A DNA stretch of 64,000 nt from NCBI GenBank assembly GCA_013298595.1, contig JAAFIG010000005.1:97544-161543 (forward strand). The letters are read 5' to 3'. Origin of the DNA: Deinococcales bacterium (lineage in GTDB: Bacteria > Deinococcota > Deinococci > Deinococcales > JAAFIG01). The translations under genes were made by a program, and so were the position numbers. The notes beneath the pieces are model-generated. The model was not told where the DNA came from. It saw nothing but the letters and a program-made list of their open reading frames with translations, and did not search any database. Of the stretch, positions 31,399 through 40,546 are shown piece by piece (the stretch's first letter is position 1; every line of letters begins with the position of its first letter).

Positions 31399-31432
31399 TT
31401 GACGTAAGCCACGGCATACGGCAAAATATAAT
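31399..31432 (+). promoter_or_regulatory. Possible glyS promoter elements
   Basis: TTGACG (31399-31404) and a perfect TATAAT (31427-31432) lie just before the T-box leader, but the 22-base spacing is longer than the usual 17. The -10 box alone may be real, with a different or weak -35. Confidence 0.35.
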
Positions 31433-31436
31433 GCAG

Positions 31437-31669
31437 CGTTGAATCGCAGGAAGTACCACGGAGTTCAATCTCGAGCGAGTTGCGGGCGGTGAAAGCGCAA
31501 CGATGAAGAGCCGTGCGAAAGGCAGCGAGGAGCTTAGTTGTACAAAGTGTCTCGAGTTACACCACAGACAGTGGTCTCGAGGAACTGGGGTGGAACCGCG
31601 CAGGCTGCCGAGGCATATTGGCACAGACTGCGTCCCCAGATGGCAATCTTTTAGCCATCTGGCTTTTTG
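31437..31669 (+). ncRNA. T-box leader of glyS
   Basis: A cis-acting RNA that senses uncharged tRNA-Gly and controls readthrough into glyS. The T-box core GGGGTGGAACCGCG lies at 31587-31600; its TGGAACCGCG matches the family consensus that pairs with the tRNA acceptor end. It is followed by the antiterminator partner region (GACTGCGTCCCC, near 31626) and a strong terminator (31636-31669). The upstream part contains a hairpin GTTGCG-GGCGGTGAAAG-CGCAAC with GGC in the loop, a candidate glycine specifier codon. I did not resolve stem I fully. T-boxes are known in Deinococcota as well as Bacillota. Confidence 0.85.
31636..31669 (+). terminator. T-box-regulated terminator before glyS
   Basis: Perfect 9-bp stem CCAGATGGC / GCCATCTGG with a 9-base loop and CTTTTT, 20 bases before the glyS start. 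It is the terminator alternative to the T-box antiterminator. Confidence 0.92.
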
Positions 31670-31688: not shown

Positions 31689-33203
31689 ATGCCCGCAGAA
31701 ACAATGGAAGAATTGGTAAGTTTGTGTAAACGTCGGGGTTTTATTTTCCCTGGCTCGGATATTTACGGTGGTTTACAAGGCACCTACGATTTTGGTCCGC
31801 TTGGTGTGGAATTAAAAAACAACCTCAAAGCCGCGTGGTGGCGTTCAATGATTTACGAACGCGACGATGTCGAAGGCTTAGACTCGAGTATCCTGACCCA
31901 TAAATTGGTTTTGCGCCACTCGGGGCACGAAGCCACTTTCTCCGATCCACTGGTAGATAACCGTGAAAGCAAAAAACGCTACCGTTTAGATCATTTGCTC
32001 AAAGAACAAACCCCAGATGTGCTCGAGGCAATTGCCACAGCTTTAAAGCTCGAGAATACTATTTCGGCTTTGGTGGCAGGGTTATTAGCACATGCCGACG
32101 CTGGAACAGTCTTAACCAATGCCAAAGTGATCGAACCAGGCGAGAAGAAACCCAGTGCTTGGACACAACCACGCTTGTTTAACATGATGTTCAAAACTAC
32201 GGTTGGACCAGTGGTAGACGAAGACTCCTACGCGTACTTGCGCCCAGAAACTGCCCAAGGTATTTTTGTCAACTTCAAAAATGTGGTGGACAGCACCTCG
32301 AGAAAACTACCTTTCGGCATTGCCCAAATTGGTAAATCCTTTCGTAACGAAATCACGCCACGCAACTTTATTTTCCGTGTCCGTGAATTCGAGCAAATGG
32401 AACTCGAGTTCTTTTGTGTACCCGGCACCGACGAAGAATGGCATGATAAATGGCTCGAGGCTCGAATTGAATGGTGGCAAAGCGTTGGGTTATCAAGGGA
32501 TCGGATTCAAATTTTCGATGTACCAAAAGAGGACTTATCACATTACAGCAAACGCACTTACGATCTGATGTACAAATACCCAAGCATTGGTTTTGAAGAA
32601 ATTGAAGGCATTGCTAACCGCACCGATTTTGATTTGGGTAGCCATACCAAAAATCAGGAATCATACGCGCTGCAAGCCAAAGTCGAACCAAACGCCGACA
32701 GCACCGAAAAACTGAGTATTAGCCATCCGGAAACCCAAAAACCCATTATCCCATTTGTTATCGAACCATCGGCAGGTGTGGATAGAGGAGTGCTGGCAGT
32801 CCTCACCGAAGCGTACACCAAAGAAACCCTCGAGAACGGCGAAGAACGCATTGTGCTTAAACTCCGACCGCACCTCGCGCCAATCAAAGTAGCGGTTATT
32901 CCACTTGCCAAGAACCGCGAAGAAATAACTTCGGTAGCCAAAAGTTTAAAAGCCAAATTGCAAAAGCTCGGGCTTGGGCGAGTGCTGTACGAAGACACAG
33001 GCAACATCGGCAAAGCGTATCGCCGCCACGACGAAGTAGGCACACCGTTCTGCATCACTGTGGACTTTGACACCATCGGACAAGGCAAAGACGGCGACTC
33101 GAGCCTAATGGACACCGTGACTATCCGAGACCGTGACACAATGGCACAACAGCGATTAAATATGAACGACCTCGAGCAATTCTTGCGAGAGAAATTACGG
33201 TAA
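31689..33203 (+). CDS. glyS: Glycyl-tRNA synthetase, single-chain type
   Basis: Class II synthetase charging tRNA-Gly; the 504-residue alpha-2 form used by Thermus/Deinococcus, archaea and some Bacillota. Motifs include [27 protein letters not shown] near the N terminus (very like the Thermus enzyme), [12 protein letters not shown] (about 186), [23 protein letters not shown] (motif 2, about 218-240), EPSAGVDRG (motif 3, about 356) and a C-terminal anticodon-binding domain. The frame is open upstream through the T-box, but ATG 31689 follows AGGAGG. Its last 44 bases are duplicated at 34147-34190. Confidence 0.96.
33160..33203 (+). repeat. 44-bp direct repeat, left copy (3' end of glyS)
   Basis: The last 44 bases of glyS, including its stop codon. 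It is repeated 43/44 at 34147-34190; the only difference changes the Lys codon before the terminal LR to Gln. The copies are 987 bases apart and bracket two genes. This is the usual geometry of an element that integrates at a gene's 3' end and carries a replacement 3' end. Confidence 0.95.
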
Positions 33204-33218
33204 GTAATCAAACCTAAA

Positions 33219-33246
33219 ATGCCCCAATCAACTGATTAGGGCATCA
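33219..33246. other. Hairpin downstream of glyS
   Basis: TGCCCCAATCA pairs with TGATTAGGGCA (one mismatch) around a 2-base loop, and is followed by TCAAAAAAA. There is no T-run on the plus strand, so termination of glyS here would be weak; glyS readthrough into the cassette is possible. Confidence 0.45.
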
Positions 33247-33267
33247 AAAAAATTCAGGTGAAAATGA

Positions 33268-33948
33268 ATGGATAGATACACACGCATTCTCTACTCGTTG
33301 CAACATCGTCCGTTGCTAACTGAACCAAATGGTATTTCGTTAGTTAGTATTATCAGCATTCCTGAAGACACAGATTTTAATACTGTTAGACGCGCTTTAG
33401 ACATCGTTCGTTATATTCATGGTGATGGTAACTTACCAGCAATTAGCGTCCAATCATTTCAAGACATCAATCCAGCTGCTTTAGAATACGATCAGAACAA
33501 TGACGGTACAATTCGACCTCGAGCTATTCTGGTCAACCTCGAGCTTGGATATTCCGAATATGATGTGATTCACGAAATAGGACATCTGCTAGATATTGCG
33601 ATTGCCCAAAATCAATATGCCAGTCGAATCAATCACCCTTTACTCAAAGCGTGGCGCGAAGCTATCGAAAATACCAAGACCGTTCAACAATTACACCGTT
33701 TAGAAGCATACGATGTAGACCAAGAAGAATTACAATATTTACTTGATCCAGCCGAACTATTTGCTCGTTCTTATGCTCAATTTATTGCAACTGCAAGTAC
33801 GGATAGTACGTTCCGTAATGAAGTCGGACAACAAGTAAGCCATGTGTTGCGGACAAGATTATTTGCCCGACAATGGAATAATGAAGAATTTGAACCTGTT
33901 GCCTATGCGTTTGAACAATTGTTTGCTAGACTAGGTTGGGTGAAATAA
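33268..33948 (+). CDS. HExxH zinc metallopeptidase-like protein in glyS-linked cassette
   Basis: A 226-residue protein with a zincin motif HEIGHLLD (His128-Glu129-His132 region) and, about 50 residues later, DPAELFARSYAQFIA, whose glutamate is a plausible third zinc ligand. This layout resembles small proteases that accompany phage or mobile toxins more than secreted peptidases. There is no signal peptide. The start follows AGGTG. It shares a TAATG junction with the following 61-residue gene. CTCGAG occurs only twice. Function is unknown; a toxin, an immunity or regulatory protease, or a mobile-element protein are all possible. Confidence 0.72.
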   Translation: MDRYTRILYSLQHRPLLTEPNGISLVSIISIPEDTDFNTVRRALDIVRYIHGDGNLPAISVQSFQDINPAALEYDQNNDGTIRPRAILVNLELGYSEYDVIHEIGHLLDIAIAQNQYASRINHPLLKAWREAIENTKTVQQLHRLEAYDVDQEELQYLLDPAELFARSYAQFIATASTDSTFRNEVGQQVSHVLRTRLFARQWNNEEFEPVAYAFEQLFARLGWVK

Positions 33949-34133
33949 TGGTACAAATTCCAGAATTAAACATTGCAGATGAAAAAGTGCCACTTGAGCA
34001 AGCAATGGCTTATGTCGTGGATAAGTATGGTTACACCCCTAAAGAAGCACGTAATTACGTTATGCGAAAACGGCATGGATACGAAAAGCGTGAAACCTTA
34101 CCAGATGGTACCGTTCGTGTGACAATGTATTGA
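33948..34133 (+). CDS. Small basic partner protein of the metallopeptidase
   Basis: A 61-residue protein starting at the ATG that overlaps the metallopeptidase stop by one base. It contains LEQAMAYVVDKYGYTPKEARNYVMRKRHGY and ends in a short beta-like TLPDGTVRVTMY. The helical middle with a basic face could bind DNA or the upstream protein. No family is recognised. Order and coupling resemble a toxin-antitoxin or protease-inhibitor pair, which is inference. Confidence 0.65.
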   Translation: MVQIPELNIADEKVPLEQAMAYVVDKYGYTPKEARNYVMRKRHGYEKRETLPDGTVRVTMY

Positions 34134-34146
34134 CAATAAAACTTGC

Positions 34147-34190
34147 ATATGAACGACCTCGAGCAATTCTTGCGAGAGCAATTACGGTAA
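34147..34190 (+). repeat. 44-bp direct repeat, right copy (glyS 3'-end duplicate)
   Basis: Right-hand copy of the last 44 bases of glyS, with one substitution (A to C). It is still readable as [12 protein letters not shown] followed by a stop, but has no upstream synthetase. It marks the right border of the 987-bp cassette. Confidence 0.95.
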
Positions 34191-34245
34191 ATAAAATGTG
34201 GGTGGGCAACTGCTCACCTAATTTGTTTTGATGTGCTAAGTATCT

Positions 34246-34989
34246 TTATGCTCTTGCTTCAATACGTTGACACAAGTTCTGCACAATAATCAGATGCTCG
34301 GGCATAAGTTTGCTTTGGTAGATTAAAGCACTTCTGGCGTATAAAACTAGTGCTGCTTCGGCTCGAGCAATGATACTTTCAGAATCAAAGCCAAGAGCTT
34401 TCCAGAATGCGTTTCTCCAAATTTCGTCGGGTTGGGCATCTCGGACTGAACTCCAAAAAATGTTTTCTGAATTGGTCAGTACTCCACTAGCTAAAGCACC
34501 AACATTAGCTAAATTGGGTAATAGGTTTACCATGGCATACAATACTTTCTCGAGATGCTGTTGTTGCAAACCACCAAGAATTTTTTGCACATACTCAGCA
34601 TTTTCTGCCAGTACCCAACTGATGCTGATGTCAGCAGCCGCTTGTACTGTTTCCCACTTAAAATCTCGAGCACGTTGCTGCAAGTTGACATACCAGTTTT
34701 CGGGGTCAAACATGATTTTGGCTTCTCGAGTTGCGCCAATGTTTAGCAGCGCCTTCCACGGGTCAGAAAGCATCAATTCACGGTTTGTGGTATCCAAAAA
34801 ATTGATGTTCACCAAACGATTTTCAAAGTAAAACATTTGATCTGGTGGACGTTCACCATGGACAATCACATGAATGTCTACATCGCTGAACGCATTCATT
34901 CGGTTTCGAGCAGCACTGCCGATCAAAACAACACTCAGTGTATTGGGATTCTGCTCGAGAGGTGCAATAATTTTTTGTAGAAAGTCCAT
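34246..34989 (-). CDS. Nucleotidyltransferase-domain protein
   Basis: A 247-residue protein with a minimal nucleotidyltransferase fold at the N terminus: VVLIGSAARNRMNAFSDVDIHVIV (about 20-43) contains the GS motif and the DxD metal ligands. The remaining 150 residues are helical and resemble aminoglycoside-type nucleotidyltransferase C-terminal domains. It could adenylylate a small molecule or protein. It lies next to the cassette but outside its repeats and has normal CTCGAG content. Confidence 0.8.
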   Translation of the reverse strand: MDFLQKIIAPLEQNPNTLSVVLIGSAARNRMNAFSDVDIHVIVHGERPPDQMFYFENRLVNINFLDTTNRELMLSDPWKALLNIGATREAKIMFDPENWYVNLQQRARDFKWETVQAAADISISWVLAENAEYVQKILGGLQQQHLEKVLYAMVNLLPNLANVGALASGVLTNSENIFWSSVRDAQPDEIWRNAFWKALGFDSESIIARAEAALVLYARSALIYQSKLMPEHLIIVQNLCQRIEARA

Positions 34990-35178
34990 ACTTCAGTGTA
35001 CGACTTACTAATCATCACTTGCATAATATGAGAAGCAAATTCACCGAACAAATTACTCACAACAAAGCCGTTGCTGTGGCTGTTTGCATTTGCTCCTCGA
35101 GCCAGAATAAAACTTCTATTTTCTAATTCGAGACTTGGGTGCAAGTTGTATCTTTTTGCCAAATGCTAGAATTACGCT

Positions 35179-35673
35179 ATGAGCGAAAAAATCCAAGACA
35201 TCCTTGTATTCCAATTTTCTGCTTCGTTGCAAATGCTGGGCAATGCCATTCGTGCTTGCCCTGATGAAGTCTGGGGCAATGAAATCAGTTATTACGAGTT
35301 TTGGTATTACGCTTATCACACGATTTTCTGGACAGATTTTTATTTGTCGGATGTGCCAGAAGAAGATTTTCGTCCCCCTGCACCATTTACGCTGGGTGAA
35401 TTTGAAGCTGATATTTTACCACCTCGAGTGTATACGCCAGCCGAATTGCTCGAGTATCTCGAGTTTGTGCAGACCAAGTGTAAAACGTATATCTCGGGGT
35501 TGACTGCCGAAAGCATGATGCAACATCTCAAAATTGGCAAACGTGATTACAGCCGTCTCGAGTGGTTGTTGTATAACTTGCGGCATGTTCAACATCATGC
35601 TGCACAACTGAATTTATTGTTGCGGCAACGCACAGATTCTGCGCCAAACTGGGTCTCGAGAGGTAAAATTTAA
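35179..35673 (+). CDS. DinB family protein
   Basis: A 164-residue DinB-fold protein: the N-terminal helix bundle includes FWYYAYHTIFWTDFYLSD (His near residue 47), and the C-terminal NLRHVQHHAAQLNLLLRQR carries the paired histidines of the metal site. It is the third DinB-fold gene in the window. Such proteins are thiol transferases or metal-dependent enzymes of unknown substrate. The peptidase gene follows 55 bases later. Confidence 0.85.
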   Translation: MSEKIQDILVFQFSASLQMLGNAIRACPDEVWGNEISYYEFWYYAYHTIFWTDFYLSDVPEEDFRPPAPFTLGEFEADILPPRVYTPAELLEYLEFVQTKCKTYISGLTAESMMQHLKIGKRDYSRLEWLLYNLRHVQHHAAQLNLLLRQRTDSAPNWVSRGKI

Positions 35674-35728
35674 GCAAGACTACTGCGCTTGTCATGCCGT
35701 TGCCATCTTTCTCGAGTAACCTTTTTTC

Positions 35729-36901
35729 ATGCGTTTACTCTGGGCTTTATTGGCAGTGTTTGCTGTACTGTTTTCACTTGTTACGGCGAATCAATTGCAA
35801 TCTGGGCGAGCTATTCGTGATGTCGAAACGCTGGTTGGCTTTGGTGCTCGAGTTTCGGGTAGTACCAATCTCGAGGTGGCGGCAAAGTTTTTGCAATCGG
35901 AGTATCAAAAAGTTGGTTTGAAAACGGAAATTGAACTGTTTTCTTTTGAGCGTTTGCGTGATTTTGGCTCGAGTGTCACAGCGGGTTCGCAAAAATTGGC
36001 TGCGGATACGTTGTACAGTTCGCAAATTTCGGATATCGAAGGTTTAGCTGTGCGTGTACCAAATTTTGGTAGCAAAGAAGATTATCAGAACCTCAGTGTC
36101 AAAGCTCGAGTGGTGCTGGTCAAGCGTGGTGGTATTCCATTTCTCGAGAAAGCTCGGGCGGCTCAAGCGGCTGGGGCAATTGCTGTGGTGATTGTCAATA
36201 GTGTGCCTGGGCGGTTAAGTGCTAATTTATTGGGTGATTTTGCTATTCCTGTGGTGGCAGTTTCTGGTGCGGATGGGACTCCGTTGCTTGAGCAAGTTGC
36301 AAAAAACGCTGTGCGCTTGCGAGTGATTGCTGATGTTCGCCGCACTTCCATTACTGGGCGTAATGTTGTGGCTAGGGGTTCGGATGCCGCCCCAAAACTG
36401 ATTCTTGGAGCGCATTTTGATAGTGTGCCTGGCAGCCCAGGAGCGAATGATAATGCCAGTGGCACAGCTGCAATTCTCGAGATGGCACGACGTTTACCTG
36501 CATCTCTAAGGGCACAAATTTGGTTTGTGTCTTTTGATGCCGAAGAAGATGGTTTGCTTGGCTCGAGTGCTTTTGTGCAGAATTTACCTACGGCAACTTT
36601 GGATGGTTTAAAAGCCATGCTGAATTTTGATATGGTCGCTGTGAATAATAAAATTTCGGTGGGGGGCTCGAGTTCGTTAACGAAATTGATTCGTGGGATT
36701 CAGCCAAATATTGGAGAATTTCAGGATTTTGCGGGTTCAGATCATGCCAGTTTCTTAGCCGAGAGCGTGCCTGCTGTGTTTTTCTGGCGTGGATTTGAAC
36801 CTAATTATCATTTACCATCTGATAGCAAAGTGGATGCTGTACTGCTCGAGGAAACCATTTCGCTTGGTCTCGAGACTGTGCAAAAATTATTGGGTCAATA
36901 A
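35729..36901 (+). CDS. M28 family secreted metallopeptidase with PA domain
   Basis: Aminopeptidase-type zinc protease, 390 residues with a signal peptide (1-20). A protease-associated (PA) domain is visible at about 105-190 (VVLVKRGGIPFLEKARAAQAAGAIAVVIVN). The M28 catalytic core follows, with zinc ligands in GAHFDSVPGSPGANDNASG (about 230), the catalytic glutamate in FDAEEDGLLG (about 271) and DHASF (about 345). It probably removes N-terminal amino acids from extracellular peptides. Confidence 0.92.
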   Translation: MRLLWALLAVFAVLFSLVTANQLQSGRAIRDVETLVGFGARVSGSTNLEVAAKFLQSEYQKVGLKTEIELFSFERLRDFGSSVTAGSQKLAADTLYSSQISDIEGLAVRVPNFGSKEDYQNLSVKARVVLVKRGGIPFLEKARAAQAAGAIAVVIVNSVPGRLSANLLGDFAIPVVAVSGADGTPLLEQVAKNAVRLRVIADVRRTSITGRNVVARGSDAAPKLILGAHFDSVPGSPGANDNASGTAAILEMARRLPASLRAQIWFVSFDAEEDGLLGSSAFVQNLPTATLDGLKAMLNFDMVAVNNKISVGGSSSLTKLIRGIQPNIGEFQDFAGSDHASFLAESVPAVFFWRGFEPNYHLPSDSKVDAVLLEETISLGLETVQKLLGQ

Positions 36902-36973
36902 GTACAGGTCTTGCTATTTTACTTGTGGCTTGAAACTCTCGAGATTTCAAGAAAACCCTGTGTGGAACGTGAT

Positions 36974-37003
36974 CGTAGGGGCGAGGCATTCCTCGCCCCT
37001 ACG
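36974..37003. repeat. Dispersed palindrome GTAGGGGCGAGGC...CTCGCCCCTAC
   Basis: CGTAGGGGCGAGG and CCTCGCCCCTACG form a perfect 13-bp inverted repeat with a 4-base loop, in the gap between convergent genes. It is the best conserved member of the small palindrome family seen at 13034, 16113 and 22113, and could also act as a terminator stem. Confidence 0.8.
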
Positions 37004-37017
37004 GGGAATTTGCTGTT

Positions 37018-37962
37018 TTAGTCGCGGAGTTTTTTGGCTGCGTCAATTAGCGCAGGCATAATCGTATGTAAGTCACCAATAATGCCGTAATCAGCAACTT
37101 TGAAAATAGGGGCTTCTGGGTCTTTGTTAATGGCAATAATATTCTTGGATTTTCCCATGCCCGATAAGTGCTGCACAGCTCCTGATACACCCACGGCAAT
37201 ATAGGCGTTGGGTTGAACTGTTTTACCTGTTTGACCAACTTGTTCTCCGTATGGTCGCCAACCTGCATCTACAGCGGCTCGAGTCGCACCAACACCTGCT
37301 CCGATAACATCGGCAAGTCCTTCGATTAGGGCAAAGTTTTCTGGGCTGCCCAATCCACGTCCACCAGTGACAACAAGACTGGCTTCGGTGAGGGCAACTC
37401 GAGTGGTTTTTTCTTGGATGCGTCCGAGAATATTGACACCACTGGCAGTTAATTCAAGTTCGACTTCGTATATTTCACCAGCAGCTCGAGTTTCAGCTAT
37501 TGCTTGGGTGTTTGGTTTAACACTGCATACAACAATCGGTGCAGTGGCTTCTAGGGTTTCTGTGACTCGAGCTAAGAAGGCGTAGTGTTGGATGCGTAAC
37601 CCACCTTCTATGCGTTCTATGTTTGTGGCATCTTCAAGGTAAGCTGCATCTAAGCGCACGGCGACTCGAGGGGCGAGTTCGCGTCCACCTCGAGAACCTG
37701 CCAGTAAAACGATTGTGGCTTCGGCTTGCTCAGCTAAATCAGCAATTGCTTTGGCAAATGTTTTAGCGGTGTATGGCTCGAGTAGTGCATCTTCGCAAAC
37801 CAAAACTTGATTGGCATATTGGGCGGCTTCAGTTGCGACTGCCCCAGCTCCTGTACCTAGTAACACTGCTGTGATATCTCCGCCAAGTTTTTGGGCTGCA
37901 CCAAGTAACTCGAGTGCAGATTTTTTAAGTTTTGTGTCAAATTCGCATTGAACGAGGATCAT
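37018..37962 (-). CDS. etfA: Electron transfer flavoprotein, alpha subunit
   Basis: FAD-binding subunit of ETF, which takes electrons from acyl-CoA dehydrogenases and passes them to the quinone pool. The 314-residue protein has an alpha/beta N domain (1-190) and the conserved FAD domain [39 protein letters not shown] (about 200-238), then [11 protein letters not shown] and [12 protein letters not shown]. It follows etfB by nine bases. No ETF-ubiquinone oxidoreductase or acyl-CoA dehydrogenase is adjacent. Confidence 0.95.
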
Positions 37963-37971
37963 ATGTCTCCT

Positions 37972-38724
37972 TTAAATAACTTTGGCTTCTTCGTGCAGTA
38001 GTTTTATCAGTTGTTCAGCAGCAGCGATGGGGTCTTTACCATCTATAAGTTTGTTTAAGCGGGCGCGTTCTTGGATTTCTTGGGCAACAATTTGCACTTT
38101 GCTGGTGCTGATTCCGTATTCGGCTGGGGTGGTCTTTTTCAGTTCTTTTTTCTTGGCTTTCATAATGTTGGGTAGTGTTGGGTAACGTGGTTCATTTAAG
38201 CCTTGTTGGGTGGTAATAATTGCAGGCAGTGTTAGCTCGAGGCTTTCTTTACCGTCGTCAACATCATGGGTGGCTTTGGCTTGATTATTATCGAGTGTAA
38301 GTTCGGTTGTCCAAGTGATTTGATTCCACTCGAGAGCTTCGGCAAGAGCTGCACCAAGGGCTTGTGAATCGGTATCGGCGTGTTGTCCGCCAACAAAAAC
38401 AATGTCTGGGTTTTCCTCGAGCACCACGGCTTTGAGAATTTTAGCTTGGGATACCACATCAAAAATGGTGTCAGTTTCGATATGAATGGCTCTTTCAATA
38501 CCCATGGCAAGGGCGCGACGAATGGCATCTTCAAAGCGGTTTGAGCCAAGGGCAACAGCAATGGTGTTGGCACCGCCTTCATTGATTCGTAAGGCTTGTT
38601 CCACACCGTATTCGTCCATGCCATCGAGTGCCATTGTGGTGCCATCAAAATCCATTTTGCTTGCTTTGGTTTTGACTTTGGCTTCGGCATCAGGGACTTG
38701 TCTGATTAAACACAGGATTTTCAT
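37972..38724 (-). CDS. etfB: Electron transfer flavoprotein, beta subunit
   Basis: AMP-binding subunit of ETF, 250 residues. Characteristic segments are ILCLIRQVPD (3-12), MDEYGVEQALRINE (about 37), VALGSNRFEDAIRRALAMGIERAIHIET (about 57), VFVGGQHADTDSQALGAALAEAL and LTLPAIITTQQGLNEPRYPTLPNIMKAKKK (about 163). The first gene of a two-gene leftward operon with etfA. It probably serves beta-oxidation together with the enoyl-CoA hydratases. Confidence 0.95.
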   Translation of the reverse strand: MKILCLIRQVPDAEAKVKTKASKMDFDGTTMALDGMDEYGVEQALRINEGGANTIAVALGSNRFEDAIRRALAMGIERAIHIETDTIFDVVSQAKILKAVVLEENPDIVFVGGQHADTDSQALGAALAEALEWNQITWTTELTLDNNQAKATHDVDDGKESLELTLPAIITTQQGLNEPRYPTLPNIMKAKKKELKKTTPAEYGISTSKVQIVAQEIQERARLNKLIDGKDPIAAAEQLIKLLHEEAKVI

Positions 38725-38797
38725 TATTGCTCCTCGAGATTTTATTTATACTCAGTCTAAAATTCGCTTTGTTGCGCGTCAAGCTGCTTTGTCCCAA

Positions 38798-40546
38798 TCA
38801 TTTTGCCAAATTGCTTAATTTGACTGTGTACTCGAGTCTTCTTGAACGGCGCTTTGGTACGTCCACATCCCAGAGTGGCATAAAAACACTGGATTGATAA
38901 TGTTTTTGTCCTTCAAATTCGCTGTTAACAGGGTGTGTCCAGAGTGTGGCTTCTCGAGAGAAATTAAAAATCAGCTCTGTGCCTAACCATTGGTCGCGCC
39001 AACCAGCGGTTTGAACTGCTCGGTGCTCGAGTTGTGCGCCTAAGTTAGAAACGGCAGTGCCATTGACAATAAATTGGCGATCTACGGATTGGGCTGTGAG
39101 CAGTGCAAAATTCCATAAACTGCCAAAGCGCAAAACAATATCCCAATCGCCTTTGTTATGAATTTGGTATTCGATTTCTAAGGTGTTTTCCTTGGGTTTT
39201 AAGCGCACCGCTTTTTTGATTTCCACAGCGACGGGTGCACCTGCGGGTCCGCGTACTGTGCCAAGTCGAGTCAGTGTCACACGGTCGCGGTACTTACCGA
39301 TTTCATATAAGCCATCGGCAAAATCACCCAGTTCAAGATAATCTCCGCTGGCAAAGGCAGCCAGTGTACTTGCTTCAGGCTCGAGGAAATGATCGGTTAA
39401 AGATAATTTGTGGCTAAACGGGTCGCAGAGGTTAGCGGCGGCTTCTCGGGCATCAAATTCAAGAATGCCGCCACCTCGAGCCGCACTAAAATACAAATTC
39501 ATGGTGTGAGCTTCGGCAATCACGTCGGGTGTGCCATCAAAATCCAGATCGCGGTAATTGATATCTAACCAACCGTATTTGCGTGGCTCGAGGATATTCT
39601 CGGCTTTGATCAGATTGCGGTACGCCGCAAATCGCAAATAATTGCTGTGCGAGCCACTTTCTTGAAGTACCGCGCTGTCTTCGGCACGCCATAAATGGGC
39701 AAAGGCTTCGTCTGGTACCCGAAAGACATCGTTGAGTTTTTCCGAGGCATACCGAATGCGTTGTTGTAAATGCCCAATTCCAGGGTAACGATGCAGCACT
39801 TCACGCCAACTCGAGCGAGGTGGTAATTGTGGTGCTGTACTTGGTAAGTAGACCACTTCGGCACGTCGGGTTGCATCGAGTAAGGTGGATAAACGCATGG
39901 TTTCAAAATGCTCGAGATGCTCAAGTAAACTCAGGAAGCCCTTGCTACGTCCAGCAATATCCTCGAGTTTAACCAGTAATACAGTATCCCCACTAAATAG
40001 GGGCACACTACCTAATTGGGCTTGTGAAGCCCGAAAAACCCGAATCGATTTACCCATTTCTTCGGCAGCAAAAAGCATACCACTCGAGATACCTGCGGTT
40101 TGAAAAAGTGTTTCAGGTAAAATTGTAAATTCTAAATCTGTTTCGGCAAGTAAAGCTGGTAATTGTGCTTCCCAAGCAAATTCGGGAGTCCAAATTCCAC
40201 GTGGTGTTACGTCAAAAAATTTCTCGAGTAATATTGTGTGGGCTCTGACTTGCCCTAGGACATCAGCTTTTGGGGTAACAGCTAATAATGGGTGGTACAT
40301 TGCCCCAGTGATAAATTCAACTCTTGAACGCAAAGCCGCTAATCTTGACAAAGCAATTGGCTCGAGGCGCTCTAACCATTCGAGTAATGCCCCAGATAAA
40401 TACAAATTACTTTTCAGTTTAGGGCGGGCTTCTAAGGCTGCTAAAGCGGGCAAGTACGCATCACGTAAAGCCCGTTGTACACCTTCCTCGAGATTGCCAA
40501 CAGGTTGATGGGCGTATAAAACCAATGCAATGCGTGGCGTTGCCAA
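38798..40546 (-). CDS. GH57 alpha-amylase/4-alpha-glucanotransferase-like enzyme
   Basis: Glycoside hydrolase family 57 enzyme of 582 residues acting on alpha-1,4-glucans. It has the GH57 opening RIALVLYAHQPVGNL, GAMYHPLLAVTP (about 75), the nucleophile region RGIWTPEFAWE (about 115) and C-terminal DUF1925/DUF1926-type beta domains (about 280-582) as in the Thermococcus glucanotransferase. I chose TTG 40546 because AGAAGG sits 8 bases upstream; a GTG at 40555 is the alternative. It diverges from the LacI regulator, with a long palindrome between them, and probably processes maltooligosaccharides imported by the transporter. Confidence 0.85.
   Translation of the reverse strand: MATPRIALVLYAHQPVGNLEEGVQRALRDAYLPALAALEARPKLKSNLYLSGALLEWLERLEPIALSRLAALRSRVEFITGAMYHPLLAVTPKADVLGQVRAHTILLEKFFDVTPRGIWTPEFAWEAQLPALLAETDLEFTILPETLFQTAGISSGMLFAAEEMGKSIRVFRASQAQLGSVPLFSGDTVLLVKLEDIAGRSKGFLSLLEHLEHFETMRLSTLLDATRRAEVVYLPSTAPQLPPRSSWREVLHRYPGIGHLQQRIRYASEKLNDVFRVPDEAFAHLWRAEDSAVLQESGSHSNYLRFAAYRNLIKAENILEPRKYGWLDINYRDLDFDGTPDVIAEAHTMNLYFSAARGGGILEFDAREAAANLCDPFSHKLSLTDHFLEPEASTLAAFASGDYLELGDFADGLYEIGKYRDRVTLTRLGTVRGPAGAPVAVEIKKAVRLKPKENTLEIEYQIHNKGDWDIVLRFGSLWNFALLTAQSVDRQFIVNGTAVSNLGAQLEHRAVQTAGWRDQWLGTELIFNFSREATLWTHPVNSEFEGQKHYQSSVFMPLWDVDVPKRRSRRLEYTVKLSNLAK

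What the first reader, a model, noticed from the sequence alone, without database searches (positions are those of the whole stretch)
33160..34190. Two-gene cassette inserted at the glyS 3' end, bounded by a 44-bp duplication of that end
The final 44 bases of glyS (33160-33203) recur at 34147-34190 with one mismatch, exactly 987 bases apart. Between them are only an HExxH protein gene and a 61-codon gene. Duplication of a host gene's 3' end is the signature of site-specific insertion with gene restoration, common for tRNA genes but unusual for an aminoacyl-tRNA synthetase gene. No integrase is in the unit, so it may be moved in trans. Placing it after glyS would tie its transcription to T-box-controlled glycine status if readthrough occurs.
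Basis: partly seen in the sequence, partly recalled or inferred. Interest (0 to 1): 0.85.

Follow-up and report, generated by a model that had tools for sequence, protein, structure and literature searches.

The report
Phage toxin-like gene pair after glyS
A tiny inserted DNA unit, a phage-derived protease gene with its small partner gene bounded by copies of the end of a housekeeping gene, recurs with the same layout behind a different gene in an unrelated bacterium, which suggests that such two-gene units move as a package.

Summary
The last 44 bases of glyS, with 4 bases beyond (46/48), recur 987 bp downstream, and exactly two genes lie between. It is an insertion, not a decayed glyS copy. 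It is absent from relatives, AT-rich, poor in the genome-wide CTCGAG motif, and it has pushed a terminator-like hairpin behind itself. Gene 1 is an intact M34-like zincin, a domain that normally forms the C-terminus of phage MuF minor-head proteins. Gene 2 is its usual small partner: in 92 of 96 related loci such an ORF follows at once. The pair is therefore an orphan MuF C-terminal toxin-type/partner module. The decisive support comes from elsewhere. An Armatimonadetes genome carries the same stand-alone pair right after galE, bounded by a 76/79 duplication of the galE 3' end. This same genome also holds an AbiE toxin-antitoxin pair between copies (84% over 107 bp) of the 5' end of a regulator gene. 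The best reading is a minimal integrative cassette, or an attL/attR-bounded remnant, lacking its own integrase. A long target duplication made during DNA capture is the main rival. Mobility, toxicity and immunity are inferred, not shown. No clean empty site was found, because the interval downstream of glyS differs in the sister species.

The parts
31430..31640 (+). T-box leader of glyS
   Evidence: Rfam RF00230 75.3 bits, E 1.1e-16, full model length, below gathering score 93
31689..33203 (+). glyS, glycyl-tRNA synthetase (single-chain type), host gene whose 3' end is duplicated
   Evidence: 95% aa identity to the same-genus relative G001
33160..33207 (+). left copy of the 48-bp direct repeat (attL-like): last 44 nt of glyS plus 4 nt
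33218..33245 (.). 12-bp hairpin in the cassette leader; no U-run on the + strand, terminator-like on the - strand
   Evidence: z -3.1
33268..33948 (+). gene 1: 226-aa HExxH zincin (H102 E103 H106, candidate E163, Y157), orphan MuF C-terminal domain
   Evidence: PHROG_4529 E 6.9e-9; alignment A3; AF2 pLDDT 90; M34-like fold Z 8-9; homologous CTs of MuF proteins
33948..34133 (+). gene 2: 61-aa partner (65 aa from the TTG at 33936, -13 from the gene 1 stop), putative immunity/antitoxin
   Evidence: profile of partner ORFs from other loci finds it best, 18.8 bits, next unrelated 9.7; same geometry as relatives
34147..34194 (+). right copy of the repeat (attR-like), 13 bp after the gene 2 stop
34199..34220 (+). 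terminator-like hairpin, probably the original glyS terminator displaced by the cassette
   Evidence: -13.9 kcal/mol, z -3.3

Best explanation
The unit is a minimal inserted element of about 987 bp. Its cargo is a toxin-type metallopeptidase with a co-encoded small partner, an orphan of the C-terminal module of phage MuF minor-head proteins. It most likely entered by site-specific recombination at the 3' end of glyS, with an integrase supplied in trans or since lost. That kept a complete glyS 3' end in the left copy, displaced the original end to the right copy, and left the pair co-transcribed behind glyS. Shown: the repeat, the foreign composition, absence from relatives, the identity of both genes, and recurrence of the same pair bounded by a galE 3'-end duplication in another phylum. 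Inferred: the integrase mechanism, present mobility, readthrough expression, and that gene 1 is toxic or defensive and gene 2 neutralises it.
For: Repeat, only one of its kind in the window. Gene 1 and gene 2 have no close homolog in 60 related genomes, and glyS 3' ends are single in the three family relatives. GC3 is 0.29-0.31 versus 0.50 in glyS; CTCGAG occurs 2 per 939 bp versus a mean of 6.1. Left copy keeps the ancestral Lys codon and the + strand terminator-like hairpin lies after the right copy. Family: 53 genome loci and 187 viral loci, mostly C-termini of 430-850-aa proteins, MuF domains in 5 of 8 tested. 92 of 96 are followed at once by a 40-115-aa ORF versus 26% of control ORFs, commonest start -13 from the stop. 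L065: stand-alone pair after galE with a 76/79 duplication of the galE 3' end, right copy 2 bp after the partner stop, score 70 versus null maximum 14. Other stand-alone pairs sit between chromosomal genes. Same genome, L276: AbiEi/AbiEii pair between copies of a gene 5' end.
Against: No integrase or attP was found; viral-collection scans for the glyS and galE ends gave nothing. Only 2 of about 9 stand-alone pairs have such repeats. Inverted repeats inside the 48 bp are not above chance. The glyS 3' end is only 79% identical between sister species, so an element using it would have a narrow host range. No empty site with matching flanks is available. The L276 repeats are more diverged (84% over 107 bp).
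Confidence: 0.55

Rival explanations
1. Long target-site duplication by DNA capture. A staggered break at the gene end was filled in while a fragment carrying the pair was joined in, giving 48-107-bp duplications without any recombinase; only insertions that keep the gene whole survive.
For: No integrase in the unit; repeat lengths differ (48, 79, 76-107 bp) and so do gene ends (3', 3', 5'). Copies within each unit are far more alike than glyS ends of sister species.
Against: Two units hold exactly the same gene pair, with right copies 13 and 2 bp after the partner stop, and both repeats end within 4 bp of the stop codon; random capture would not do this so neatly.
Confidence: 0.25
2. Remnant of a larger prophage or island once integrated at glyS (a CIME-like relic). 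All else, the integrase included, was deleted, and the pair was kept by selection.
For: The cargo is of phage origin; CIMEs (elements that lost integration and transfer genes but kept attL and attR) are known (PMC5704250). L088 shows a gene 1 homolog in a roughly 8-kb island bounded by tRNA-Thr 3'-end repeats.
Against: Independent decay to the identical two genes and tight borders at two sites is unlikely without selection; in phages the module lies in the head region, not beside the att sites.
Confidence: 0.15
3. Ordinary rearrangement: a partial tandem duplication of glyS, with unrelated genes later placed between the copies.
For: The interval after glyS is variable in the sister species.
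Against: No glyS homology upstream of the right copy, and the galE case repeats the layout with the same cargo.
Confidence: 0.05

Closest known systems
MuF polymorphic toxins of temperate phages (Jamet et al. 2017, PMC5576092)
   Same: C-terminal toxin-type metallopeptidase followed at once by a small putative immunity ORF; the paper reports 20% metallopeptidase CTs and 89% followed by a small ORF
   Different: The MuF delivery domain is missing and the pair lies alone in the chromosome between duplicated host-gene ends
CIMEs (cis-mobilizable elements; review PMC5704250)
   Same: Unit without integrase between attL-like and attR-like repeats at a gene 3' end
   Different: About 1 kb, two genes only, no trace of conjugative or mobilizable parents
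Orphan toxin/immunity modules of polymorphic toxin systems (stand-alone toxin cassettes, PMC3482391)
   Same: Detached C-terminal module with its partner; G074 shows a displaced old CT beside a new one
   Different: Here the orphan is not beside a parent toxin gene; it is behind glyS, with duplicated ends
Integron gene cassettes (from general knowledge)
   Same: Compact promoterless unit with the recombination-like site just after the last stop codon
   Different: Repeats are copies of the host gene end, unrelated between the two cases, not cassette-borne attC
M34 peptidases (PPEP-1/PPEP-2, lethal factor catalytic domain)
   Same: Predicted gluzincin fold, Z 8-9, PPEP 18-20% identity over about 148 residues
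   Different: Below the Pfam cut-off for ATLF (16.9 versus 27.4 bits); no secretion or targeting domains

Membership tests
MuF polymorphic toxins | N-terminal MuF domain in the same protein | tested here: not met
   Gene 1 is 226 aa, only the CT domain; no PF04233 in the whole G000 assembly
MuF polymorphic toxins | C-terminal domain homologous to those of MuF proteins | tested here: met
   homologs are CTs of proteins with PF04233 or PF06152
MuF polymorphic toxins | small immunity-type ORF directly downstream | tested here: met
   Gene 2 matches the partner profile; 92 of 96 loci. That it confers immunity is not tested
CIME / attL-attR bounded element | direct repeats at both ends that restore the host gene | tested here: met
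   46/48 repeat containing the glyS 3' end and stop codon in the left copy
CIME / attL-attR bounded element | no integrase inside | tested here: met
   Two genes only; only an XerC/D-like PF00589 match in the genome
CIME / attL-attR bounded element | repeats recombine (excision in the presence of an integrase) | not testable with these tools
   Needs PCR or a reporter
Integron gene cassette | cassette-borne attC at the 3' side | tested here: not met
   Repeats are host gene ends (glyS; galE in L065) and unrelated to each other; no significant inverted repeat inside
Insertion sequence / transposon | terminal inverted repeats and a transposase | tested here: not met
   No inverted repeat at the ends; no transposase between the copies
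Peptidase family M34 | sequence match to the family model (Pfam ATLF) | tested here: not met
   16.9 bits, cut-off 27.4
Peptidase family M34 | gluzincin fold of the LF/PPEP type with HExxH and a distal Glu | tested here: met
   AF2 model Z 8-9 to LF and PPEP; H102, E103, H106, Y157 and E163 conserved in A3; the metal-ligand role of E163 is inferred

The most novel reading that the evidence does not exclude
There is a class of integrase-less, two-gene mobile cassettes carrying toxin-partner pairs (MuF-CT metallopeptidase with its partner, AbiEi/AbiEii) that insert at gene ends and restore the gene by a 48-107-bp duplication, mobilised in trans by a recombinase not yet identified.
Probability: 0.3. 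Interest if true: 0.85.

Novelty: new variant of a known kind. Interest (0 to 1): 0.6.

Why it matters
Toxin-partner pairs turn up alone in chromosomes and it is seldom clear how they got there. A unit of about 1 kb with both junctions visible, repeated at a different gene in a different phylum and with a different toxin-antitoxin pair in the same genome, gives a concrete and testable model of how such pairs spread without carrying their own mobility gene. It also shows that phage MuF toxin-type modules escape from phages and persist alone.

Tried and rejected
Remnant of a second glyS: rejected, homology ends sharply. Duplication hotspot at glyS across the phylum: no repeat of the glyS end within 20 kb downstream in 19 Thermaceae-type and other Deinococcota genomes. 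Empty site in G001: single glyS end, but other genes follow, so not conclusive. Empty galE sites near L065: relatives have single galE ends with different downstream genes. attP in viral contigs for glyS and galE ends: none. Symmetric recombinase core in the repeat: not above chance. Close homologs of gene 1 or gene 2 in phage and plasmid records: only 26-28% identity to Akkermansia phage head proteins for gene 1, nothing for gene 2. Defence-system models: no hit for either gene. A scan of 1.31 Mb of G000 for isolated direct repeats of 34-220 bp (at least 85% identity) gave 4 pairs, of which only the window one bounds a toxin-type pair; 0.59 Mb of control sequence gave 1, so such repeats alone are not diagnostic; L276 (84%) falls just under that filter. 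Literature: no report found of integration at a glycyl-tRNA synthetase gene end; absence from this library is weak evidence.

Full report
Observation. Outside local tandem arrays it is the only exact repeat of 17 bp or more in the window, and it scores 42 against a maximum of 12 for shuffled flanks. A genome-wide search returned only this place.

What lies between. Only two genes lie between the copies. Gene 1 (33268-33948, 226 aa) has an intact HEIGH motif. Sequence libraries give sub-threshold Pfam hits (LPD1, ATLF) but a clear PHROG hit to the C-terminus of a phage minor head protein. Relatives in other Deinococcota are the C-terminal domains of MuF proteins. A profile search found 53 loci in bacterial genomes and 187 in IMG/VR, mostly C-termini of 430-850-aa proteins; five of eight full-length proteins tested match PF04233 or PF06152. 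The model (pLDDT 90) is a gluzincin closest to PPEP and lethal-factor catalytic domains (Z 8-9), and the HExxH residues, Y157 and E163 are conserved. Gene 2 is the matching small partner: 92 of 96 family members are followed at once by a 40-115-aa ORF (26% in control ORFs), most often starting 13 bases before the stop; the window pair has a TTG at that position. A profile from the other partners finds gene 2 at 18.8 bits, next unrelated 9.7. Its predicted fold is low-confidence: two helices and a hairpin.

Why it is an insertion. Gene 1 and gene 2 have no close relative in 60 related genomes. The sister species G001 and two further family members have a single glyS 3' end. The unit is AT-rich at third positions (0.29-0.31 versus 0.50) and poor in CTCGAG, the motif that marks this genome. 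A + strand terminator-like hairpin lies after the right copy, not after the left, as if the glyS terminator had been pushed downstream. The left copy keeps the Lys codon also seen in G001 and G002. In G001 the genes after glyS differ (yqeK-like, Uma2-like, branched-chain amino acid transport), with synteny resuming 5.6 kb later in the window, so a clean empty site is not available.

Independent recurrence. Among loci where the domain stands alone, L065 in an Armatimonadetes assembly has the same architecture: stand-alone gene 1 homolog and partner directly after galE, with the last 79 bases of galE repeated (76/79) starting 2 bp after the partner stop. Relatives of that genome have one galE end and no cassette. 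Other stand-alone pairs (L068, L082, L106, L076, L260, L261) show no such repeat, so not every orphan pair arrived this way or the traces have faded. L088 has a gene 1 homolog in an island between tRNA-Thr 3'-end repeats. In the window's own genome, L276 holds AbiEi/AbiEii genes between copies of the 5' end of a BTAD-type regulator gene (84% over 107 bp).

How it probably works. The neatest model is a small circle, pair plus an attachment site matching a gene end, integrated by an enzyme supplied in trans; the gene end is restored and the pair is read from the host gene's transcript, here under a T-box (RF00230). The rival is a long duplication made when a fragment was captured at a staggered break. 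The first is favoured because in both the glyS and galE cases the repeat stops within 4 bp of the stop codon and the right copy starts 2-13 bp after the partner gene. Control scans show that isolated direct repeats of this size do occur, so the case rests on the repeated combination of cargo and borders.

Function. Jamet and co-workers argue that MuF toxins with small downstream ORFs are toxin-immunity pairs. By analogy gene 1 is a toxin-type or defensive peptidase and gene 2 its control. No toxicity or protection was tested, and a virion-maturation origin of the peptidase remains possible.

Verdict. New variant of a known kind: an orphan phage toxin-type module in a minimal unit bounded by duplicated gene ends.

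Noticed in passing
whole window; also G001-G003: CTCGAG occurs 413 times in 64 kb (6.5 per kb, about 32 times the naive expectation, nine times the next palindrome); 5-8 per kb in the other members of the family but 0.4-2.2 per kb in other Deinococcota sampled: a HIP1-like iterated palindrome.
   Followed up: partly
L276:14383-16533 (G000:C11): AbiEi/AbiEii type IV toxin-antitoxin pair bounded by copies (84% over 107 bp) of the 5' end of an 870-aa BTAD/TPR regulator gene.
   Followed up: partly
L065:5800-6987: Same stand-alone peptidase-partner pair after galE, with a 76/79 duplication of the galE 3' end.
   Followed up: yes
L088:1226-9238 (L239:9127-17139): Island of about 8 kb between tRNA-Thr 3'-end repeats, holding an AAA ATPase, AbiE-like genes (not profile-checked) and a gene 1 homolog.
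   Followed up: partly
L053 (G074:C1 near 2554400): A MuF remnant followed by a different HELAHH zincin frame, then the remnant of the older CT domain with its small partner: displaced orphan module.
   Followed up: no
L265:4818-8263: Peptidase-partner pair plus a phage virion-morphogenesis-like gene lies between two ABC-exporter genes in a Methylobacter genome.
   Followed up: no
window 34246-34989, minus strand: Nucleotidyltransferase next to the cassette, weakly like MntA antitoxin and HalB; a homolog in G002 at another locus.
   Followed up: no
window 33203-38798: The interval between glyS and the gene starting at 38798 has entirely different genes in the sister species G001, with conserved synteny on both sides.
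   Followed up: partly
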